A DNA stretch of 64,000 nucleotides from Monosiga brevicollis MX1 (Eukaryota > Opisthokonta > Choanoflagellata > Craspedida > Salpingoecidae): the NCBI RefSeq assembly GCF_000002865.3, contig NW_001865040.1, positions 132,888 to 196,887 of the forward strand, read 5' to 3'. The position numbers were made by a program, and so were the translations under genes. The notes below the pieces were generated by a model. It was not told the origin of the DNA and did no database searches. It worked only from the letters and a program-made list of their open reading frames with translations. Below, piece by piece: positions 15,864 through 27,979 of the stretch. Each line of letters starts with the position of its first letter. The first letter of the stretch is position 1.

Positions 15864-18579
15864 CTAGTCCCAATCATCACCGTCGTCGCCGCCATCGTCA
15901 TCCGAGCCCGGCGGCAGTTGCGGGATCATGGCGGCCAGGTTGTCCATCATTGAATTTCCCGTCTTCAAAGGCTGCAAAGAATAAGATTGGTAATACCCCC
16001 CAAGGCCATCAAACAGAATCAAACAGTCAGGATTTGGCAACAAAATCAGCGACTGATGGTCACAAGCCTGTGCCTCACCGGAGGGGCCGGACGATCATCC
16101 TCATCCTCCTCTGCTTCTTCCAGCACAGGCGGGGCTGCAGAGGCGGCGGCAGCGGCAGGCTTGGGTTTGTCCTTGTCCTTTTTGGTATTCCCGGCCATGC
16201 TGCGGCGTCGCATCTAACATGCATAAATCGGAGCGTGAGCACAAACGCCAACTACCAGACGAGCCCCGGAAGACGGTCGGGGTGAAGGGAGGCAGCGGAG
16301 GTGGGCGTACCATTAGATGCTGACGCATTTGTGACATAATGTCGCCACCGCCGGCAGCCACGGACTGCTCTTCCTTGGCCTTTTTCTTTTCTACTTTGCG
16401 TTCCTGGACGCAGAACGATGGTTACACCGCGCGCTTGGCTCGTGGCGCGTACCAATCCAGCCCAGATCACAAGGAAGGGATTAGCATCAAGAAGCATTGA
16501 ACGCGGGAACGTACCTTGACGGATTTCAAATTGGCCTTGTTGTTGCGACGAATGGAGGCGAGCAAGTCGTTGCGCGCGTCACCCTACGCCATCGATCGCA
16601 TCGGTATTGAGCAGAGCACAAGGCCACAGGCTTATCATCCAAGTCAAGCGTCATCACTCTGACTTACGCCGCCACCTTCGCCATCGTCGCTGTCGACATC
16701 GTCGACCGCAAGAGTTGGGGTTGCTGTAGCCGCTGGCGGTGGTGCTGGAGGTGGTGGTGCGCCTGCAGGCGGGGGCGGGGGCGGGGGCGGGGGACCACCG
16801 GCGGGCGGGGGCGGAGGCGGCGGCGGCGCAGCACCACTGGGGGGAGGTGGCGGTGGCGCACTGCTGGTTGGAGCACTCGCCGGGGCTGCGGCCTGCGTGA
16901 CAGTTTGATCGGGGGCAGCCGGTGCCGGGGCGGCCTCAAATGCTGGTAGGTTGTCCAGGGTTTGACTGCAAGACCAAGAAATTGACAGGTCAGGATCATG
17001 ATGTTCATCTCTTGGTTGATTGGTTGCTGGGCAGAGGTACATACTCCATGGCAGAGGGGGCAATTGAGGCTGAATTTTCTTCCACAAAGGCCAGGTCGGC
17101 CACGCCTTGAAGATCCGGCAAGAAGGCGGGGGCATCGATGGTGGGCACGGCACCCATGCCAGGTTTGTATTTGTAATTCTCGCCCTCCTGCAGTGTCGGT
17201 GCACGCGTGGTCAGAAAGAGTGTGAGAGTTTAAAAGTGTCTGATGGCCGATATGGGTATGCCCTGTTGCATACATACCGCAGACACGTAGTGCTCGCCCA
17301 TGAGGATGGTTTTGGGAGCGTCGGCCAATGCTTGCTCCTCGTCCACATCTATCAGGTTCATAGAGACGAGATGAGAATCAAAGCGCAATCAAACAAAACA
17401 AAACAAAACTGCTTGTCAAAGGCATGGTGGGGGGTGGGGGTCAAAACCCCGTGTTCGGCGAGGAAGGAAGGCACGGACCGTCGCGGGTACGAGTGACGGT
17501 GCCTCGAAGAGGATCAACCAGCGTGTACTTCTTGTAGGGGTTTTCTGCCGTGTTAAAGAGGAGGAGGCCGCTCACAGATTGTAGTTGCGGGGGCAACCCA
17601 CCCAGACCTTCGTGCTCTTCGTCAACGGGATCGGCACCACGCTCGCGTTTACGAATCGTGTTCTGTTGCAAAGGCATCCAGAACAGCCAGGTTATCATAT
17701 GAACAAAGAGGCACAGGTCATGTCAGATGCAAGTCGATGCTTTTTGAGGGGACGGAGGAACGCACCGATTTGAAGTTGTAAATGCGATCGCGATCGACCA
17801 CGTCCTCAGGCTTGGGCTAAATGTATTTAAAAAAAAAAAAAAAAAAAAAAGGTCAGAGGAGGGTTGCGTGTCAGGTTACAGTGTACGCAGTGCTACCATG
17901 GGTATCGTGACGCGGGTGGACGAGAGGAGAGTGCACAAAAGCAGGCCACGGGCACAGATCACGGTTTAACCCACAATGCGGCTTTCGATCGAGTGCTCCA
18001 CAAATCCGGGACCAAGATGTGATTCTTGGAAAAGAGCTTGTGGATAGTCAAGTTTATCATCCGCCACGTACTTGGCACTAAGCCCCGGTCATCGCAACGT
18101 GAGCCACGCAAAATCATGGACACATTACCCTCGTTTCTGCAACCAGTTTGCCTTTCGAGGCGTCAACTCACCTGCAGAAGACGGTGGTGGCGCGACGAGT
18201 GCCGACGATCTTTTGCACTTTGGCATTGGCCGTGTTGATCCGGTTGTTGACGGCTACCAGGCGTTCCTTGTTGGCATTGACCTGTGGTTCAGTCATGAGC
18301 AGAGTTAATACACACGCGCAAAAGCCTTTGTCGGCGTGCAAGCAAGCCTGGGTGCGCAGGAGCCCAGAGCCCCTTGGCGCCACTGCCACAACCAGCCAGC
18401 CCGAAACGAACCGAAGTGGTAATCTTGCCAAAAATATCGTCCACAGTAGCGGAGAGGTACTCTAGCGCATCCAACATTTGCTGAAGCGATTCTTCCTCTC
18501 GCAAATGTGCCGGCACCACCGGCACATGATAGACCTGTGGCACCACGGCCGCCGCCGACGGTGCAGGCAACGTCGCCAT
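15864..18579 (-). CDS. WASHC1: WASH complex subunit 1 (Arp2/3 nucleation-promoting factor)
   Basis: Activates Arp2/3 on endosomes to drive retromer-dependent sorting. Start at 18579. The N-terminal WAHD1 region reads [20 protein letters not shown] then [17 protein letters not shown] (human [32 protein letters not shown]). Next come the [15 protein letters not shown] helix, the hallmark [20 protein letters not shown] with [12 protein letters not shown] near 17490-17620, and a polyproline stretch near 16740-16870. The C-terminal VCA module has the WH2-type [11 protein letters not shown] region near 16380-16400, MSQMRQHLM, and the acidic DDWD end at 15867-15890 typical of Arp2/3 binders. About ten introns. 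The protein keeps all known WASH modules. The identity is secure; exact exon borders are approximate. Confidence 0.93.
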
Positions 18580-18600
18580 TCTCAACCTCCAGAAACACAA

Positions 18601-18893
<293 letters not shown>

Positions 18894-19174
18894 TCTAGAT
18901 GAGAAAGTGTGCTGAAAATCACACTTCCGCTGAAGACCCCTTTCGTTGTTTTCTTTTTCTTTCTGGAACGGAACGCGTTGATGTGAGCACCTCTCTCGAG
19001 GAGAAAAGGGCAGCGGGCTTTATTGGCTGTGGTGCTTGAATGCCGAGGGGTGGCAAGCGCGTTTGGTTAGGTCTTGTTGGATAGAAAGGGGTTTGAATGT
19101 GGGAAGATAGGTCATGCTTCAGACTCATCAGGCGTGTCATGTGGCTGGCGGCAGTCACGTTTATCAACGTCAGC
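18894..19174. other. intergenic, divergent WASH (-) / CHORDC1 (+)
   Basis: About 280 bp beyond the GA tract that, with the tract, forms a shared divergent promoter region of about 600 bp. No coding signal was seen. Confidence 0.5.
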
Positions 19175-21598: not shown

Positions 21599-24500
21599 TT
21601 ACGGAGACGAAGTAACATCCCAAGCATCAGTATGCGCCGCGCCCGGGCGTGGGCTCCGACAGTTTTTAAACTTTTCGGCCAGCGCGGCGTTGAAAGAGGA
21701 CACGAGGCCAGCCTTGGGGCTGACAGGCACTCGGACAGGCGTAGTTGGGCGCCGTAGGCTGTTGTACTGAAAGTCGCGAATATCTGTCAGCACAGAGCTT
21801 CGTGGGCTCCGAGGTCTGGACTGTACTGCCTGCAAGTTTGTTGCCTTCAGCTGATGGCGGCCGTGACGCAATTCGAGCAAGACAGTCTCGTGTGGGCTAA
21901 GCTGTGGCGTAGAAGAGGTTTGCGCGTCTTTGGCCGGTGAGCTCACTTGCTTCAAGGGGTGTAGTTCAGCTGCAGCACGAATGGCAGTCATAAGAGTAGA
22001 GTGTGGATCACGCGATGCGGCAGGTGCAACCACGGGGGCTTTGCGAAGGCTGGAAGTTGAAAACGCTCGGATTGCTGTCAAAACCTGGTCGCGAGGCGCT
22101 GACATTGGAGCCTGGGGTGCCGGTGCTGGCCGCAACCGCGTTGTGTCAAAGTCAGCAATGGTTTGTAGCACTTGGTCTCGCATTGACACCGGTCGGGCGG
22201 CTTGTTGACCTACCGGCTGCAGGTTTTGGCGATCAAAACCCTGCAGATCAACAGTCAACGAAGAGCTGCCCTGTTTGCCGGACGCCATTGTCCTGGGCAT
22301 GGGTGGCGCAGGCGGCGCAGGGGGCACGGGCGGCGCAGGGGGTGCAGTATAAACATTGACGTGTCTGGCTTGTGCTCCTTGAGATGAGGGAAGCACAGCA
22401 GCAGCCGGTGGTGCTTGAGGTGCCACTTGCGTTCGAACGCGGGGGGGAGGTGGTGGGGGAGCTGATGGCGTCGGGGTGCGGCGCGCAGCCGACATGGGCC
22501 CGGCACATGGGGTGATATTGTGTGTTGTAGGGGTCAGAGGCTGCGACAAGGAACCTGAACGCGAGCGAACACGTGGGGGCGGAGGTGGCGGCTGCTTGCG
22601 AGTCTGTGATGCAGCACTTGTGCTAGCAGCAGGACTTGGTTTGAGGACCGGCGGCGGACGCAGTGCCACTCGCTGCGGTGCGACGTCAGTGGCAGAGACT
22701 GGGGCGTCCTCGTGCTTGCCCTTCTGAGCCGGCACCACAGAAGCGCTGATTGAGGTGGCTGCTGACAAAGTTGGAGCTGGCAATTGATCCGGTACCACTT
22801 GTGAGGCGCGCACCTTTGGTGCCATGGTTTTTTGGCCTCCTTGAGCAAGGGGGCGACGCTGTACACCAGACGGTTCCGGTGAGGCCGTAGCAGACGTTGG
22901 TCCGGCCAACGCAATGGATGCACCAGCATATCGCCGACGGGCTTGTGCGAGTTGCAACTCAGCCATGAGTGGGTTAGCGCTTTGGGTGGCGGGCTCCTCA
23001 AGCTTGGACTCCATAGGCGGCCGCAGTGCTTGACGTTTAAAACCACGAATCTGATCGAGCAGGTCGTGTTGGGCCGGACCCGATGCTTTCGGTTGCACCA
23101 GCGGTTGCCTCGACGATAGTCTTGGTGCTGGTGCTGGTGCTGGTGGTGCTGGTGCTGGTGGAGCAGGCGGTACACTGGCCGTGCGCCCTGGGGCCGGCAG
23201 CGCCGGACCGGGTGCTGGGCTGTGAGGATCAGTCTCTGATTCGCCCATGGGCTCAAAATCCGAAAAGTCACTGTCGCTGAAGGCGTCACGGTCATCTGGT
23301 TCCAGGAAAGACATGGCCAATGGTGGTGGCGGCGGCGCCTGCCGTGGAGGTGACGGCGTGAGGTTTAGGCGCACCGCGCCCACGGTCCGAGTAGGGGAGA
23401 AGGACTCGTCAAAGTCCACGCGGTGACGTATTGGTGAGTGGTTTGTCATAGATCCCGGCAGTGCCAGCATGTTGGCCGCCATGTGCCTTGCTCGATGAAG
23501 GCGGGGTCCACTGCTGCCACGGCTGCTTGCAGAGGACATGGGCGAAGGCAATAGGTAGTGTTGCATGCGTGCTTGGCGGGAACGACGCGGGGAAGCTCCG
23601 CGCAAAGGCGAAGCCTGTCGAACAGGGCTGCGCGGGCCGCTGGAAATGTGGTGTTGACCCCGCGTGCGGCTCAGGCCAGGAATCCGAACCCGAAGTCGCT
23701 GGGTACTACGCGTGGGGCTTGGCACAATGTGGCGGGGGGAGGTGTGGCCCGGGGCTGCGGGTGCTACCCGAGTGACAGGAAGCTTGGCTCGATCATGGCT
23801 GGTGTGACTCGAGGAGCCCAGAGCCAAGCGACTGGGGCTAACGGGGCGACTGCTGCTTGCACTCTTGGGTGCCTGTTGGGGCTGGGACTGTGAAGAATGG
23901 GCAGCGGGTGCGTTGGTGGGGGCATCATTGGAAGTTGGCCTAAAGCGTCGGCGGACCTGCAAGCGCAGGTGCTCGCGCTCACGAATCAGCTGCACGGCAA
24001 CTGAGTGTAGGATGCCACTCGTTGAGGCCCCGTTGACCGTCACGATTTCCTGCCCAGTTCGCAGGCCAGCAGCGTAGGCGAGCGAATTGCGATGAACATG
24101 GCTGACAATGAGAGGTCGTTGATACTCTGCACCACCCGCAATGTTGAAGCCCAACGCCTGTCCACTCAGGACAGGGATCACAATGTCGTGGTTGGGGGTC
24201 GTGCTGGTGTGACTGGCTGCAGCAGAGCTGCCTTTGGAGGCAGCGGAGCGAGCCGACGGTGCAGGGGAGGCCCAGTCATCATGTGTGCGGGGACCAGCCT
24301 TGGTAGGTGAGGTTTGGCGATTGCCAAGATCAGCCAGGGCGGGGCGGGTTGCGGGCTTGGTCGCCAGTTTCTGGCTCGAGGTATTTTTCTGGGGTGCCGC
24401 GACTGAGGCACGAGTGGCAGAGGCACGAGCAGCAGCGCCGCTGGGAAGAATGAGTAAGCGCACTGTTTTTTTACACGTCGCAAGCAGGTGCTTGAGATGC

Positions 24501-25173
24501 TCAGCCGCCGTTGCGCGCGATGTTCCGGCCAAGCGCGCTTGATTCAGAACCAGAAGGACGTCTCCCTCGCGCAAGCCGGCAGCGGCTGCCGGTGAGCCCA
24601 GGTCAACGCGGGTGACGATGGGCAAGTGCTGATGGATGTTCACAGAGAAGCCCAGGGGCAGGCGGGTGGACGAGCGGCGTAATGTGACAACCAGCAGCTG
24701 GCCAGCCTGAGCACCATCGAGCTGCAGCAGCTGGTCGAAGCGGCAGGGGGGGTTGGTGGCAAACTGCCAGATGCGCCGTTCGACATCAAAAGCGTCTCGA
24801 TGCTTGGGCAAAACTAGCGGTGCCACGAGGTCAAGAAGCTTGATGTGACGAGGCCGCGAGATGACTCGGCCGAGGTTCAGCAGAAAGTCTTCAAGGTTGG
24901 CAGCGGTGGCATACTCTTGCCAAGCCCTAGCGTCGCGAGACCGTGACATGAGCTTATCCGAACGGGCAGCAAAAACGCTTGGCGATTGTCGAGGGGAAAC
25001 AAACACAAAAAAAAAAAAAAAAAGAAACAAGCACACCCTCAAGGGTACCGGGGTTGAACCTACGTCGCAAGAATTTGCTGCTCTATGCTGGTCAGGGCCG
25101 ACCGAGCTTTGCGGGCCAGCATGCGGCGCTCGCGTTCAAGCGCACCACGCTCCAAGGCCACCAGGCCCACCAT
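21599..25173 (-). CDS. harmonin-N/PDZ/PDZ scaffold with C-terminal WH2-like repeats
   Basis: Two exons, 25173-25064 and 24977-21599, join in phase to about 1162 residues. Residues about 1-120 form a charged helix (ERGALERERRMLARKARSAL) and then NLEDFLLNLGRVISRPRHIK, LLDLVAPLVLPKHRDAFD, which resembles the helical N-domain of harmonin/whirlin (harmonin: LFDAIRPLIPLKHQVEYD). PDZ1 is at about 130-215 (LPLGFSVNI loop), PDZ2 at about 315-400 (ALGFNIAGG loop). A Pro/Ser-rich region follows to about 935, with polyproline stretches. WH2-like motifs lie near DNA 23070 (LLDQIRGFKRQALRP), 22265 (LTVDLQGFDRQNLQP), 22185 (VLQTIADFDTTRLRP), 22098 (VLTAIRAFSTSSLRK), 22005 (LMTAIRAAAELHPLKQV), 21890 (VLLELRHGRHQLKAT) and 21799 (VLTDIRDFQYNSLRR). 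These suggest actin binding or nucleation as in Cobl or Spire, targeted by PDZ domains. Function is inferred. No single known orthologue was recognised. Confidence 0.85.
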
Positions 25174-25876: not shown

Positions 25877-27979
25877 ATGTCGGACGCCGAGAGTGACTTT
25901 AAGATGTACAGCGATGACTTTGACACGGAGGACGAACAACGCCTGCCCGTGGCTGCTCAAGCTCCCCGGCGTCAACCCGCTCCCCCGAGCACCACCAACG
26001 GCACGTCCAACGGCAAGGTGCGCCGCCGAAAAGTGTCGACCAAGCCTTCTCGGGGTGGCCCGCGTCGGGTCGTCAGCTCAGCCGAGCGCGAGTATCAGAA
26101 CGGCCTCCAGAGTCGCCTGCAGGCCGCCGAGAAGGAGAACCAGGAACTGAGGCGTGAACTCAAGCTTCTGGAAAAGATTCAACGTCGCCAAACAAAGGCC
26201 ATTGATCAATATGAGGGCTCCAACTCTGAGTTGCCATCACAATTGCGGCAGCGCGAGGAGGAGCTGCGCGCTCTACGTGAACAAATGCGCAACCTGAAGG
26301 CTCGCAACACCGAGCTCGAGGCCAGCCACCAGAAAAAGGACAAGCACATGCAGCAGGTACGGGACAAGGCCCGCCGCTTGGAGTCGCTCGTCAAGGACAA
26401 AGATCTTCTCGAGGCCGCCACCGCCACCGAGCGGGTACATCAGCTGGAGCAAGAACTGCAGACGAAAAATGAAGCAGTCTCAAAGCTGCAGCACCATTGC
26501 GACCTGCTGCAAAAGCAGCTGGCTCGTGCCGAGGCCAGCCAGGGGAAGCAGGTGTCGCAGGTCAAAGGCGAAGTGTCTCATCTCGAGCGACGCATTGAGG
26601 AGCTGGAGGACAAACTTGCAGCTCGAGACCGCCAGCTTGAGAAGCTCAACATTCTGGCCGCGCGGGATCGTCGAGCTCCCGTCATGGAAGCTCGTGCGGA
26701 CAACACACCGGCTAAACCCGCCATCGCACGTGAAGCAACTCGTTCTGCTTTTATGACCAACCCCTCTCCCTCTCCTCCCCGCAGTCCGCCAACCAAGGCC
26801 CAGGCTCAAGCGCCGTCACAGCCTGCTGTTGCCCCGGTGCGCCGTAAGCAGCCCGCCTTGCCGCAAGCCGCAAAGGAACCCGCGCCGCGTGCGCCAGTCG
26901 CGGCCAGCCCTTCTCCAGTTCCCGACGTGCAAAATTTCTCCCTTCCAGAGAGCCCAACGCGAACCGTCACGCCGGCGCAAGCCACCCCGCGCACCACTAC
27001 AGCTGGGTTTGATGCCGATCGCGATGCCCGTGAGCGCGCAGAGCAAGAGGCCCGCGAGCGGTTGGAAAAGGAGGCCCGTGGGCGGGTGGAGCAAGAGGCT
27101 CGTGAGCGCGCAGAGCAAGAGGCCCGTGAGCGGTTGGAGAAGGAGGCCCGTGACCGCGCAGAACAAGAAGCCCGCGAGCGCCTGGAAAAAGAGGCCCGGG
27201 AGCGCCTGGAGAAAGAGGCCCGGGAGCGTGCAGAACAAGAGGCTCGCGAGCGCTTGGAGAAAGAGGCCCGGGAGCGTGCAGAACAAGAGGCTCGCGAGCG
27301 GCTGGAAAACGAGGCCCGTGAGCGTGCAGAACAAGAGGCTCGGGCCAAGGCCGAACAGGATGCCGCCGAGGCACGTCGCAAAAAGGATGCTCTCCTGGCT
27401 AAACTTCAAGCGATTGACGACGTTACCGACGTGGGTAGCACAACAGCACCTGCACCCACGGCAGCAGCAGCGCCTGCCCCCATCCCGAATGCAGGGAGTG
27501 GCGTGCCTCTTTGGATGCAAGCTGGCCCTCGCAAGGCCCGTGAGGTACCCGATTCGGTCCAAAACTTGCACCAGGGCAAGCCCGCGCGGCCCGACCTTCT
27601 GGAGGACTTCCGTGATCGAAAAGCAGTCACTTCGCAGCGCCCAACGGGTACCAATGGTCCCCTCCCTGACTTTCTAACCAGCGCCCCCAAGTCTTCGAAA
27701 GGTCCAATCGGCACAAGCGCAGGTAGCGCTCAAAATGCCCTGAGCTTCTTTGACAACGCTGCCACCAAGCCGCGCGGTGGCGGCAACACAGCGCTGCCCT
27801 GGGAGCAGAAAGCTGCAGCTGCCTCTGTTGTAGAGGCACCGAGCGTTGCTGCGACATCGGCGCCCGCACCCTCCAGCGCCAGTTCTTCCCTGCCCTGGCT
27901 TCAAGGGCCTGCGTGCACGCGCGCGGCGCCAAAGGCACGCTCGTTCTTGGATGACAATCTTGAGAGTATAGCAATTTAA
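25877..27979 (+). CDS. LCA5: lebercilin-like ciliary protein (LCA5)
   Basis: Lebercilin binds intraflagellar transport particles at the ciliary base and axoneme (human LCA5, a Leber amaurosis gene). Single exon of 700 residues; the ATG at 25877 starts an acidic MSDAESDFKMYSDDF segment. The lebercilin coiled coil is at about residues 70-265. It contains ELKLLEKIQRRQTKAIDQYE and SNSELPSQLRQREEELRALR (human LLEKHQNKALRQTEESNSELPQLL), and ends with DRQLEKLNIL (human DRELEIKNIY). Then come a Pro-rich linker, a 13-unit octapeptide ER/K helix (about residues 390-495) and a Pro/Ala-rich C-terminus with the short motif PLWMQ/LPWEQ/LPWLQ seen three times (near 27510, 27795 and 27890). It fits a flagellated organism. 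An intronless gene is unusual in this window. Confidence 0.88.
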   Translation: MSDAESDFKMYSDDFDTEDEQRLPVAAQAPRRQPAPPSTTNGTSNGKVRRRKVSTKPSRGGPRRVVSSAEREYQNGLQSRLQAAEKENQELRRELKLLEKIQRRQTKAIDQYEGSNSELPSQLRQREEELRALREQMRNLKARNTELEASHQKKDKHMQQVRDKARRLESLVKDKDLLEAATATERVHQLEQELQTKNEAVSKLQHHCDLLQKQLARAEASQGKQVSQVKGEVSHLERRIEELEDKLAARDRQLEKLNILAARDRRAPVMEARADNTPAKPAIAREATRSAFMTNPSPSPPRSPPTKAQAQAPSQPAVAPVRRKQPALPQAAKEPAPRAPVAASPSPVPDVQNFSLPESPTRTVTPAQATPRTTTAGFDADRDARERAEQEARERLEKEARGRVEQEARERAEQEARERLEKEARDRAEQEARERLEKEARERLEKEARERAEQEARERLEKEARERAEQEARERLENEARERAEQEARAKAEQDAAEARRKKDALLAKLQAIDDVTDVGSTTAPAPTAAAAPAPIPNAGSGVPLWMQAGPRKAREVPDSVQNLHQGKPARPDLLEDFRDRKAVTSQRPTGTNGPLPDFLTSAPKSSKGPIGTSAGSAQNALSFFDNAATKPRGGGNTALPWEQKAAAASVVEAPSVAATSAPAPSSASSSLPWLQGPACTRAAPKARSFLDDNLESIAI
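27046..27357 (+). repeat. 24-bp tandem repeat, 13 units, coding an ER/K octapeptide helix
   Basis: Inside the lebercilin-like gene. Each unit codes E-A-R-E-R-(L/A/V)-E-(K/Q), with small changes between copies (EARGRVEQ, EARDRAEQ, EARERLEN). The i to i+4 Glu/Arg pairing predicts a stable single alpha helix of about 15 nm rather than a normal heptad coiled coil. Confidence 0.92.

What the first reader, a model, noticed from the sequence alone, without database searches (positions are those of the whole stretch)
21599..25173. PDZ scaffold fused to an array of WH2-like motifs
The sequence directly shows two PDZ-like domains after a harmonin-N-like helical region, and later about seven short segments of the form L-x-x-[IL]-x-x-[FG]-x(4-6)-L-[KRQ], six of them within about 180 residues of the C-terminus, plus polyproline stretches. 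Families: harmonin/whirlin HHD-PDZ scaffolds organise stereocilia; tandem WH2 proteins such as Cobl and Spire bind several actin monomers and nucleate filaments. I know of no described protein that joins them. Inference: a membrane- or cadherin-anchored actin nucleator, perhaps for the actin-filled microvilli of a choanoflagellate collar and related to the origin of stereocilia links.
Basis: partly seen in the sequence, partly recalled or inferred. Interest (0 to 1): 0.85.

Follow-up and report, generated by a model that had tools for sequence, protein, structure and literature searches.

The report
Harmonin-type scaffold with actin-binding repeats
A choanoflagellate protein appears to join a hearing-protein-like scaffold (HHD plus two PDZ domains) to a row of seven short actin-binding-type repeats, so one molecule could gather actin monomers at chosen membrane proteins; the combination is unusual and its activity is untested.

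Summary
The minus-strand gene 21599-25173 is Monosiga brevicollis MX1 MONBRDRAFT_5536 (1145 aa). It encodes a harmonin homology domain (HHD), two PDZ domains (Pfam 1.1e-19), a long Pro/Ala/Ser-rich linker, and seven mutually related segments, six of them stepping every 29-37 residues near the C-terminus. Pfam WH2 reaches only 20.1 bits (cut-off 23.1). A profile of the seven segments alone matches 12 PDB sequences at E<=10, of which 10 are WH2 proteins, three with E<0.01; permuted and reversed controls give no WH2. The HHD crosses the intron: 5 of 5 PDB matches are HHDs (weak, E 0.13-1.5), and similarity to whirlin HHD2, not HHD1, exceeds 2000 shuffles. The closest precedent is delphilin/GRID2IP (PDZ-HHD plus formin), so scaffold plus actin assembler is known; WH2s in the formin's place were described in no paper found. 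Capped searches found no homologue of the array or of HHD-PDZ1 outside M. brevicollis. Actin binding, nucleation, collar location and cadherin anchoring are inference. A tentative Arp2/3 C-region-like helix follows the last repeat.

The parts
25064..25173 (-). Exon 1 (residues 1-37), first helices of the HHD
   Evidence: two-exon join reproduces P0001 exactly; deposited model of MONBRDRAFT_5536
24927..25063 (-). Intron (137 nt, GT...AG)
   Evidence: with a nearer acceptor (intron 25063-24978) the N-terminus finds 0 PDB sequences, with this one 5, all HHDs
21599..24926 (-). Exon 2, one uninterrupted frame to the stop codon (21601-21599), residues 38-1145
24776..25098 (-). Harmonin homology domain (HHD), residues 26-87, split by the intron
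   Evidence: CCM2, PDZD7 and harmonin HHDs are all 5 PDB matches, best E 0.13; score 53 against whirlin HHD2, z 7.1, 0 of 2000 shuffles; against HHD1 z 1.1, 295 of 2000
24440..24700 (-). PDZ1, residues 113-199
   Evidence: PF00595 two stretches; PF13180 26.0 bits, just under its cut-off of 27; whirlin PDZ1
23945..24187 (-). PDZ2, residues 284-364, whirlin/harmonin-like, His at start of helix alphaB (class I type, recalled rule)
23123..23170 (-). Pro-Ala-rich run before W1
23021..23062 (-). W1, residues 659-672, isolated WH2-like segment (LLDQIRGFKRQALR)
   Evidence: Pfam WH2 13.8 bits, below cut-off; 0 of 2000 shuffles
22559..22591 (-). Polyproline run (PPPPPPRVRSR)
22427..22459 (-). Polyproline run (PPPPPPRVRTQ)
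22295..22342 (-). Polyproline run (PPAPPVPPAPPAPPMP)
22217..22258 (-). W2, residues 927-940 (LTVDLQGFDRQNLQ)
   Evidence: 1 of 2000 shuffles reaches it
22130..22171 (-). W3, residues 956-969 (VLQTIADFDTTRLR)
   Evidence: 0 of 2000
22043..22084 (-). W4, residues 985-998 (VLTAIRAFSTSSLR), best Pfam WH2 match
   Evidence: best stretch of the whole-protein match, 20.1 bits; 18.3 bits alone; cut-off 23.1; 0 of 2000
21950..21994 (-). W5, residues 1015-1029 (LMTAIRAAAELHPLK)
   Evidence: 0 of 2000
21845..21883 (-). W6, residues 1052-1064 (VLLELRHGRHQLK), among the weakest members
   Evidence: 5 of 2000
21752..21793 (-). W7, residues 1082-1095 (VLTDIRDFQYNSLR); modelled as helix then a tail mostly without regular structure
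   Evidence: 0 of 2000; helix 4-14 of a 33-residue piece, mean pLDDT 83.6
21659..21709 (-). Segment resembling the Arp2/3-binding C region (residues 1110-1126), tentative
   Evidence: best of all windows in the protein; 18 of 50554 background windows and 8 of 5000 shuffled tails reach it; no PDB match
21614..21628 (-). DAWDV near the C-terminus (residues 1137-1141), only Trp after residue 255; possible weak acidic-Trp motif

Best explanation
It is a single scaffold-plus-actin-assembly protein. The N-terminal HHD and two PDZ domains dock it on partner proteins: PDZ2 has the class I groove signature, for C-terminal S/T-x-hydrophobic tails of membrane proteins, and the HHD would take a helical partner. 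The polyproline runs recruit profilin-actin or SH3 proteins. Six tandem WH2 motifs, with one more upstream, hold several actin monomers in a row and so promote filament nucleation or barbed-end elongation at the docking site. Supported by computation: one gene model, HHD-PDZ-PDZ, and a seven-member WH2-like repeat family. Inferred: actin binding, nucleation rather than sequestration or severing, membrane partners, and location in the cell.
For: Continuous 3.3-kb exon frame carrying both halves. Pfam PDZ 70.9 bits and WH2 E 4.9e-4 for the whole protein. The segment profile against PDB gives 10 WH2 proteins of 12 matches. The five segments that Pfam does not call give 6 WH2 of 10. Controls give 0 matches, and 3 matches none of them WH2. 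Regular spacing of 29, 29, 30, 37 and 30 residues. The strongest of the 12 WH2 candidates scored in this genome (46.1 bits, L001) has the same I-x-x-F-S-x3-L-K spacing. HHD tests. M. brevicollis SPIRE with two WH2s was tested in vitro under the heading 'nucleates and depolymerises actin', and the actin residues that contact Spire WH2-D are conserved (PMC11231147, passages).
Against: No single segment reaches Pfam's WH2 cut-off; 2 of 7 are reported at all. The genome-wide Pfam WH2 search did not list them among its 12 scored candidates. In the PDB test 7 of the 10 WH2 matches have E between 0.05 and 1.6, and single stretches are weak. The second position of the L-K pair is Arg or Gln in 5 of 7, and the residues after it vary. 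No homologue of the array elsewhere, so conservation cannot be used. The full-length model failed (mean pLDDT 33.8) and no complex with actin could be modelled. WH2 tandems can also sequester or sever. No transcript, expression or localisation data were seen.
Confidence: 0.55

Rival explanations
1. The WH2 array is real but ends in an Arp2/3-activating C-like helix and a weak tryptophan motif, so the protein is a PDZ/HHD-anchored Arp2/3 activator (WASP/WAVE-like output) rather than a Spire/Cobl-like nucleator.
For: Residues 1110-1126, directly after W7, are the best match in the whole protein to three C-region helices (one read from this genome, two recalled); 18 of 50554 background windows and 8 of 5000 shuffled tails reach the score; the only Trp after residue 255 is at 1139, within DAWD. 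Another M. brevicollis frame, C55:53960-57049, has two Pfam WH2 stretches followed, by eye, by a C-like helix and an acidic tail.
Against: The tail is barely acidic (two Asp in the last 16 residues). PDB search with the last 40 residues gave 0 matches. The seeds were chosen by me after seeing the tail, so the counts are not a clean test.
Confidence: 0.15
2. The array sequesters monomers, or caps or severs filaments, or feeds profilin-actin to an Ena/VASP- or formin-type elongator, without nucleating by itself.
For: Tandem WH2 proteins such as Spire and Cobl are described as sequestering, nucleating and severing (PMC13364712, passage). Polyproline runs lie beside the array.
Against: Nothing here separates this from nucleation; the near-constant 29-30 residue spacing resembles nucleating arrays (recalled).
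Confidence: 0.2
3. The segments are filament-binding short linear motifs (SFM, VxxLxxxFE, as in Lifeact and ITPKA), making the protein an F-actin decorator.
For: Five segments share I/L-x-x-F, superficially like the L/IIxxFE motif named in a reference title of PMC13364712 (passages).
Against: No match in the protein to [VIL]xx[VIL]xxx[FY]E or a relaxed form. Set to that register, the P4 position is Q, D, T, A and D in W1, W2, W3, W4 and W7. The profile finds WH2 chains.
Confidence: 0.05
4. The segments are chance or low-complexity look-alikes in a disordered tail.
For: Individual Pfam scores are low; residues 366-1145 are 16.5% Pro and 13.7% Ala.
Against: Leave-one-out scores, shuffles, permuted and reversed controls, and the window-wide frame scan.
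Confidence: 0.05

Closest known systems
Delphilin / GRID2IP (PDZ-HHD-FH1-FH2 formin)
   Same: Joins PDZ and HHD modules, on one chain, to FH1-FH2, an actin-assembling output (PMC5628938 passages)
   Different: Output is an FH2 formin, not WH2s; that paper calls its PDZ-HN N-terminus a metazoan innovation; PDZ-PDZ-HN-PDZ-HN order
Whirlin / harmonin / PDZD7 (Usher scaffolds)
   Same: HHD followed by two PDZ domains; two fish whirlins are the only other proteins with E<=0.01 among the 7989 candidates scored, and whirlin (KIAA1526) and harmonin chains are among the best PDB matches of PDZ2
   Different: No third PDZ or second HHD seen; a C-terminal WH2 array is not described for these proteins as far as I recall
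Spire, including Mb-SPIRE
   Same: Tandem WH2s; a Spire-derived chain is the top profile match
   Different: Spire has KIND and FYVE_2 domains and, in M. brevicollis, two WH2s (PMC11231147, passages); no PDZ or HHD (recalled)
Cordon-bleu and leiomodin
   Same: Both match the profile; leiomodin-2 aligns without gaps over 21 positions
   Different: No PDZ or HHD (recalled)
Choanoflagellate PHCF formins
   Same: Choanoflagellate actin assemblers that carry a PDZ domain (PMC5628938, passage)
   Different: PH-PH-PDZ-FH1-FH2-PH; WH2-like motifs were not considered in that paper's domain analysis

Membership tests
WH2 (PF02205) | Score over the curated Pfam cut-off (23.1 bits) | tested here: not met
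   20.1 bits for the whole protein; 18.3 and 13.8 for two single segments, none reported for five
WH2 (PF02205) | Sequence relationship to WH2s of known actin complexes | tested here: met
   Profile of the seven segments: 10 of 12 PDB matches are WH2 proteins, three with E<0.01; permuted and reversed controls 0 WH2
WH2 (PF02205) | N-terminal amphipathic helix, then extended L-K/R stretch | tested here: met
   W7 piece modelled as helix 4-14, later residues mostly without regular structure, mean pLDDT 83.6; one segment, monomer only; Foldseek found no match
WH2 (PF02205) | Binding to actin between subdomains 1 and 3 | not testable with these tools
   No complex with actin could be predicted here; needs an assay
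PDZ (PF00595) | Score over the curated cut-off | tested here: met
   70.9 bits over two stretches, cut-off 23.2
Harmonin homology domain | Sequence similarity to known HHDs | tested here: met
   5 of 5 PDB matches are HHDs but the best E is only 0.13; z 7.1 against whirlin HHD2, though only z 1.1 (295 of 2000 shuffles) against whirlin HHD1
Harmonin homology domain | Five-helix bundle of about 70 residues | tested here: inconclusive
   Five helices between residues 2 and 93, pLDDT only about 48-62 over residues 11-80 and lower after that
Whirlin family | HHD1-PDZ1-PDZ2-HHD2-PDZ3 order | tested here: not met
   Only two PDZ stretches and one HHD match in the protein
Delphilin / GRID2IP | FH2 domain | tested here: not met
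   No FH2 in the Pfam scan at E<=10
Arp2/3 nucleation-promoting factor (WCA) | C helix after WH2 | tested here: inconclusive
   positive with seeds chosen afterwards; no match
Arp2/3 nucleation-promoting factor (WCA) | Strongly acidic tail with Trp | tested here: not met
   Two Asp and one Trp in the last 16 residues
SFM filament motif | VxxLxxxFE or close variant | tested here: not met
   0 matches in P0001, strict and relaxed

The most novel reading that the evidence does not exclude
A harmonin/whirlin-type membrane scaffold that is itself a multi-WH2 actin nucleator (possibly with an Arp2/3-contacting tail), so that PDZ docking on membrane tails directly seeds actin filaments in a close unicellular relative of animals, for example at the base or tips of collar microvilli.
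Probability: 0.25. Interest if true: 0.75.

Novelty: new variant of a known kind. Interest (0 to 1): 0.55.

Why it matters
In animals, Usher-type scaffolds and actin assemblers are, as far as I recall, separate proteins brought together at microvilli and stereocilia; delphilin is the known exception that joins the two. A choanoflagellate protein that fuses the scaffold to a WH2 array would be an independent solution to the same coupling. It would also give a single, directly testable link between membrane tails and actin assembly in a unicellular relative of animals. It does not by itself explain stereocilia origins, because no relative of the array was found outside M. brevicollis.

Tried and rejected
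Tried without use: full-length structure prediction with two whirlins as companions (mean pLDDT 33.8); Foldseek of the 33-residue W7 model (no match); PDB search with the last 40 residues (no match); PDB search with the N-terminus under a different splice acceptor (no match), which speaks for the deposited splice; search of the DAMM paper on M. brevicollis PDZ domains for whirlin, harmonin, 5536, WH2 or 'Table S' in its main text (0 passages); text search for the locus tag (0 papers). The genome-wide Pfam WH2 search did not list the finding's segments among its 12 candidates; its first look passes on only the best candidates.

Rejected: chance origin, the SFM filament motif, and membership in whirlin or delphilin (see rivals and membership test). 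A second M. brevicollis HHD-PDZ protein was looked for with P0001 and with a fish whirlin. Judged by query coordinates, the matches apart from the gene itself (3 of 5; 26 of 27, the other being this gene's PDZ2) lie in or around the PDZ regions and none covers a whirlin HHD. An HHD model made from four whirlin HHDs found nothing in the frames of the 15 loci held then. That model is insensitive: it gives only 5.4 bits on P0001 itself and did not list this gene's own frames, probably because the intron splits the HHD there.

Limits: expression and splicing were not checked with reads. Homologue searches were word-limited (7989 best-sharing candidates scored, 5565 scored), so a diverged choanoflagellate relative could be missed. 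The permuted and reversed controls used 18-residue cores, shorter than the 24-position profile.
Full report
What it is. The finding lies in a 39.5-Mb, 57-contig genome, window C55:132888-196887. The spliced protein is identical to MONBRDRAFT_5536 of Monosiga brevicollis MX1, 1145 aa, named 'uncharacterized protein' and 'PDZ domain-containing' by its sources. The gene runs on the minus strand from ATG 25173 to stop 21601-21599, with one 137-nt intron at 25063-24927. My first splice guess, with an earlier acceptor and 1162 aa, is worse: the N-terminus from that guess finds nothing in PDB, while the deposited splice finds five sequences, all HHDs.

One gene or two. Exon 2 is a single frame of 3.3 kb that carries the end of the HHD, both PDZs, the linker and all seven repeats. 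G+C differs between codon positions by 0.1 or more in 8 of 12 blocks of 100 codons; the four weak blocks are residues 201-300, 401-500, 501-600 and the last 45. So codon asymmetry supports translation of the W1-to-W7 region but says little about the middle linker. Transcripts were not available.

N-terminus. Pfam gives PDZ at 70.9 bits over two stretches. Apart from the protein itself, the only ones with E<=0.01 among 7989 scored candidates are two fish whirlins; for the one compared directly the best alignment is at PDZ2. The best PDB matches are KIAA1526 (recalled to be whirlin), PDLIM2 and harmonin PDZs. PDZ2 keeps the histidine at the start of helix alphaB shared with whirlin, the class I ligand signature (recalled). 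PDZ1 has arginine in the aligned place. The HHD at residues 26-87 is weak by single-sequence statistics (best PDB E 0.13), but 5 of 5 matches are CCM2, PDZD7 and harmonin HHDs, and it scores z 7.1 against whirlin HHD2, 0 of 2000 shuffles. Against whirlin HHD1 it is not significant: z 1.1, 295 of 2000. The AlphaFold model of the whole protein is poor (mean pLDDT 33.8), though this stretch is its most confident part and is helical.

The repeats. Among 230 frames of at least 100 aa in the window, no other has more than one. I count seven segments, W1 to W7; W2 to W7 start 29, 29, 30, 37 and 30 residues apart. A profile built from the other six recognises each held-out segment: 0, 1, 0, 0, 0, 5 and 0 of 2000 shuffles reach W1 to W7, so they form one repeat family, W2 and W6 being the weakest (6.4 bits each). 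Pfam's own WH2 model reports 2 of 7 singly, both under its cut-off, and 0 of 7 shuffled versions.

Identity of the repeats. The seven-segment profile matches 12 distinct PDB sequences at E<=10: Spire, N-WASP twice, Cobl-containing chains four times, leiomodin-2 twice, WAVE2, and two troponin I. The three best (Spire, N-WASP, Cobl) have E 5e-5 to 0.002; the other WH2 matches have E 0.05-1.6 and troponin I 3.5 and 6.2. An earlier set with one mistyped residue gave 9 WH2 of 11, the others being obscurin. The five segments that Pfam does not report alone give 10 matches: six WH2, three obscurin, one UvrA. Permuting the columns gave none, and reversing gave three aerotaxis-transducer chains. In the frames of 15 fetched loci, the next best after this gene were frames that Pfam WH2 had brought in, but with E of 0.05 or more. 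The strongest of the 12 WH2 candidates scored in this genome (46.1 bits) reads LLGSIQSFSKRGLKK, with the same helix-to-LK spacing and the same Phe as W1-W4 and W7, so that form is a legitimate WH2 here. The W7 piece models as a helix followed by a stretch mostly without regular structure.

How it probably works. PDZ2 and HHD dock the protein on partners, polyproline recruits profilin-actin or SH3 proteins, and the WH2 array lines up actin monomers. M. [quoted passage not shown] brevicollis actin (PMC11231147, passages). Seven motifs are therefore a plausible nucleating unit. The same anatomy would also fit sequestration, severing or elongation support. A segment just after W7 resembles the Arp2/3-binding C region of WASP-family proteins, but the tail is scarcely acidic, the seeds were picked afterwards, and no database match supports it.

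Comparison with the known. Delphilin/GRID2IP joins PDZ and HHD modules to FH1-FH2 and is described as having a metazoan-invented N-terminus that resembles animal and choanoflagellate whirlin homologues; the same paper reports a PDZ in choanoflagellate PHCF formins (PMC5628938, passages). A survey of HHDs reports no significant new architecture and has no occurrence of choanoflagellate, Monosiga or WH2 in its main text (PMC8048344, passages). In freshwater sponges harmonin is choanocyte-enriched, whirlin homologues were found in one of two species, and Cordon-bleu in neither (PMC4942974, passages). Text searches for PDZ with WH2 in Monosiga, for harmonin and whirlin in choanoflagellates, for PDZ domains in M. 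brevicollis, for delphilin with HHD, for choanoflagellate WH2 nucleation, for WH2 with PDZ nucleators, for the locus tag, and for harmonin with Cordon-bleu (listings, and passages of the six papers opened, of which PMC8512817 gave none) showed no description of a PDZ-WH2 fusion. The library holds open-licence papers only, and no supplements were read.

Verdict. Observation confirmed and interpretation partly supported. The architecture is a new variant on a known theme (PDZ-HHD scaffold with an actin-assembling tail). It is so far known from one species, and no functional step has been measured.

Noticed in passing
L015 3461-6550 (-), genome C55:53960-57049: A 1030-aa frame with a proline-rich stretch and two WH2 stretches (whole-frame score 23.4 bits, just over Pfam's 23.1), followed by eye by a C-like helix and an acidic tail (SDSEDDGF): looks like an Arp2/3-activating protein.
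   Followed up: partly
L001 1492-1773 (-), genome C47 around 1005899-1005988: Best of the 12 WH2 candidates scored in the genome (46.1 bits), with I-x-x-F spacing and NDRSG after it, as in WIP/verprolin (recalled).
   Followed up: partly
L005 1387-2742 (-) and L007 568-2223 (-), genome C26: Two more proline-rich frames with, by eye, several WH2-like motifs each (Pfam 23.3 bits with neighbours, and 20.3 bits), so M. brevicollis seems to have several multi-WH2 proteins.
   Followed up: no
L014 3912-7469 (-) and 282-3122 (-), genome C51: Neighbouring long frames with, by eye, many PDZ-like repeats, one followed by what looks like SH3 and guanylate-kinase-like sequence.
   Followed up: no
window 18289-18902: Long (GA/CT)n microsatellite stretch that gives open frames of SLSLSL and RERERE on both strands.
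   Followed up: no
window 25877-27979 (+): Divergently transcribed neighbouring frame encoding an acidic N-terminus and a long charged stretch with ARERxEQE-type repeats, coiled-coil-like.
   Followed up: no
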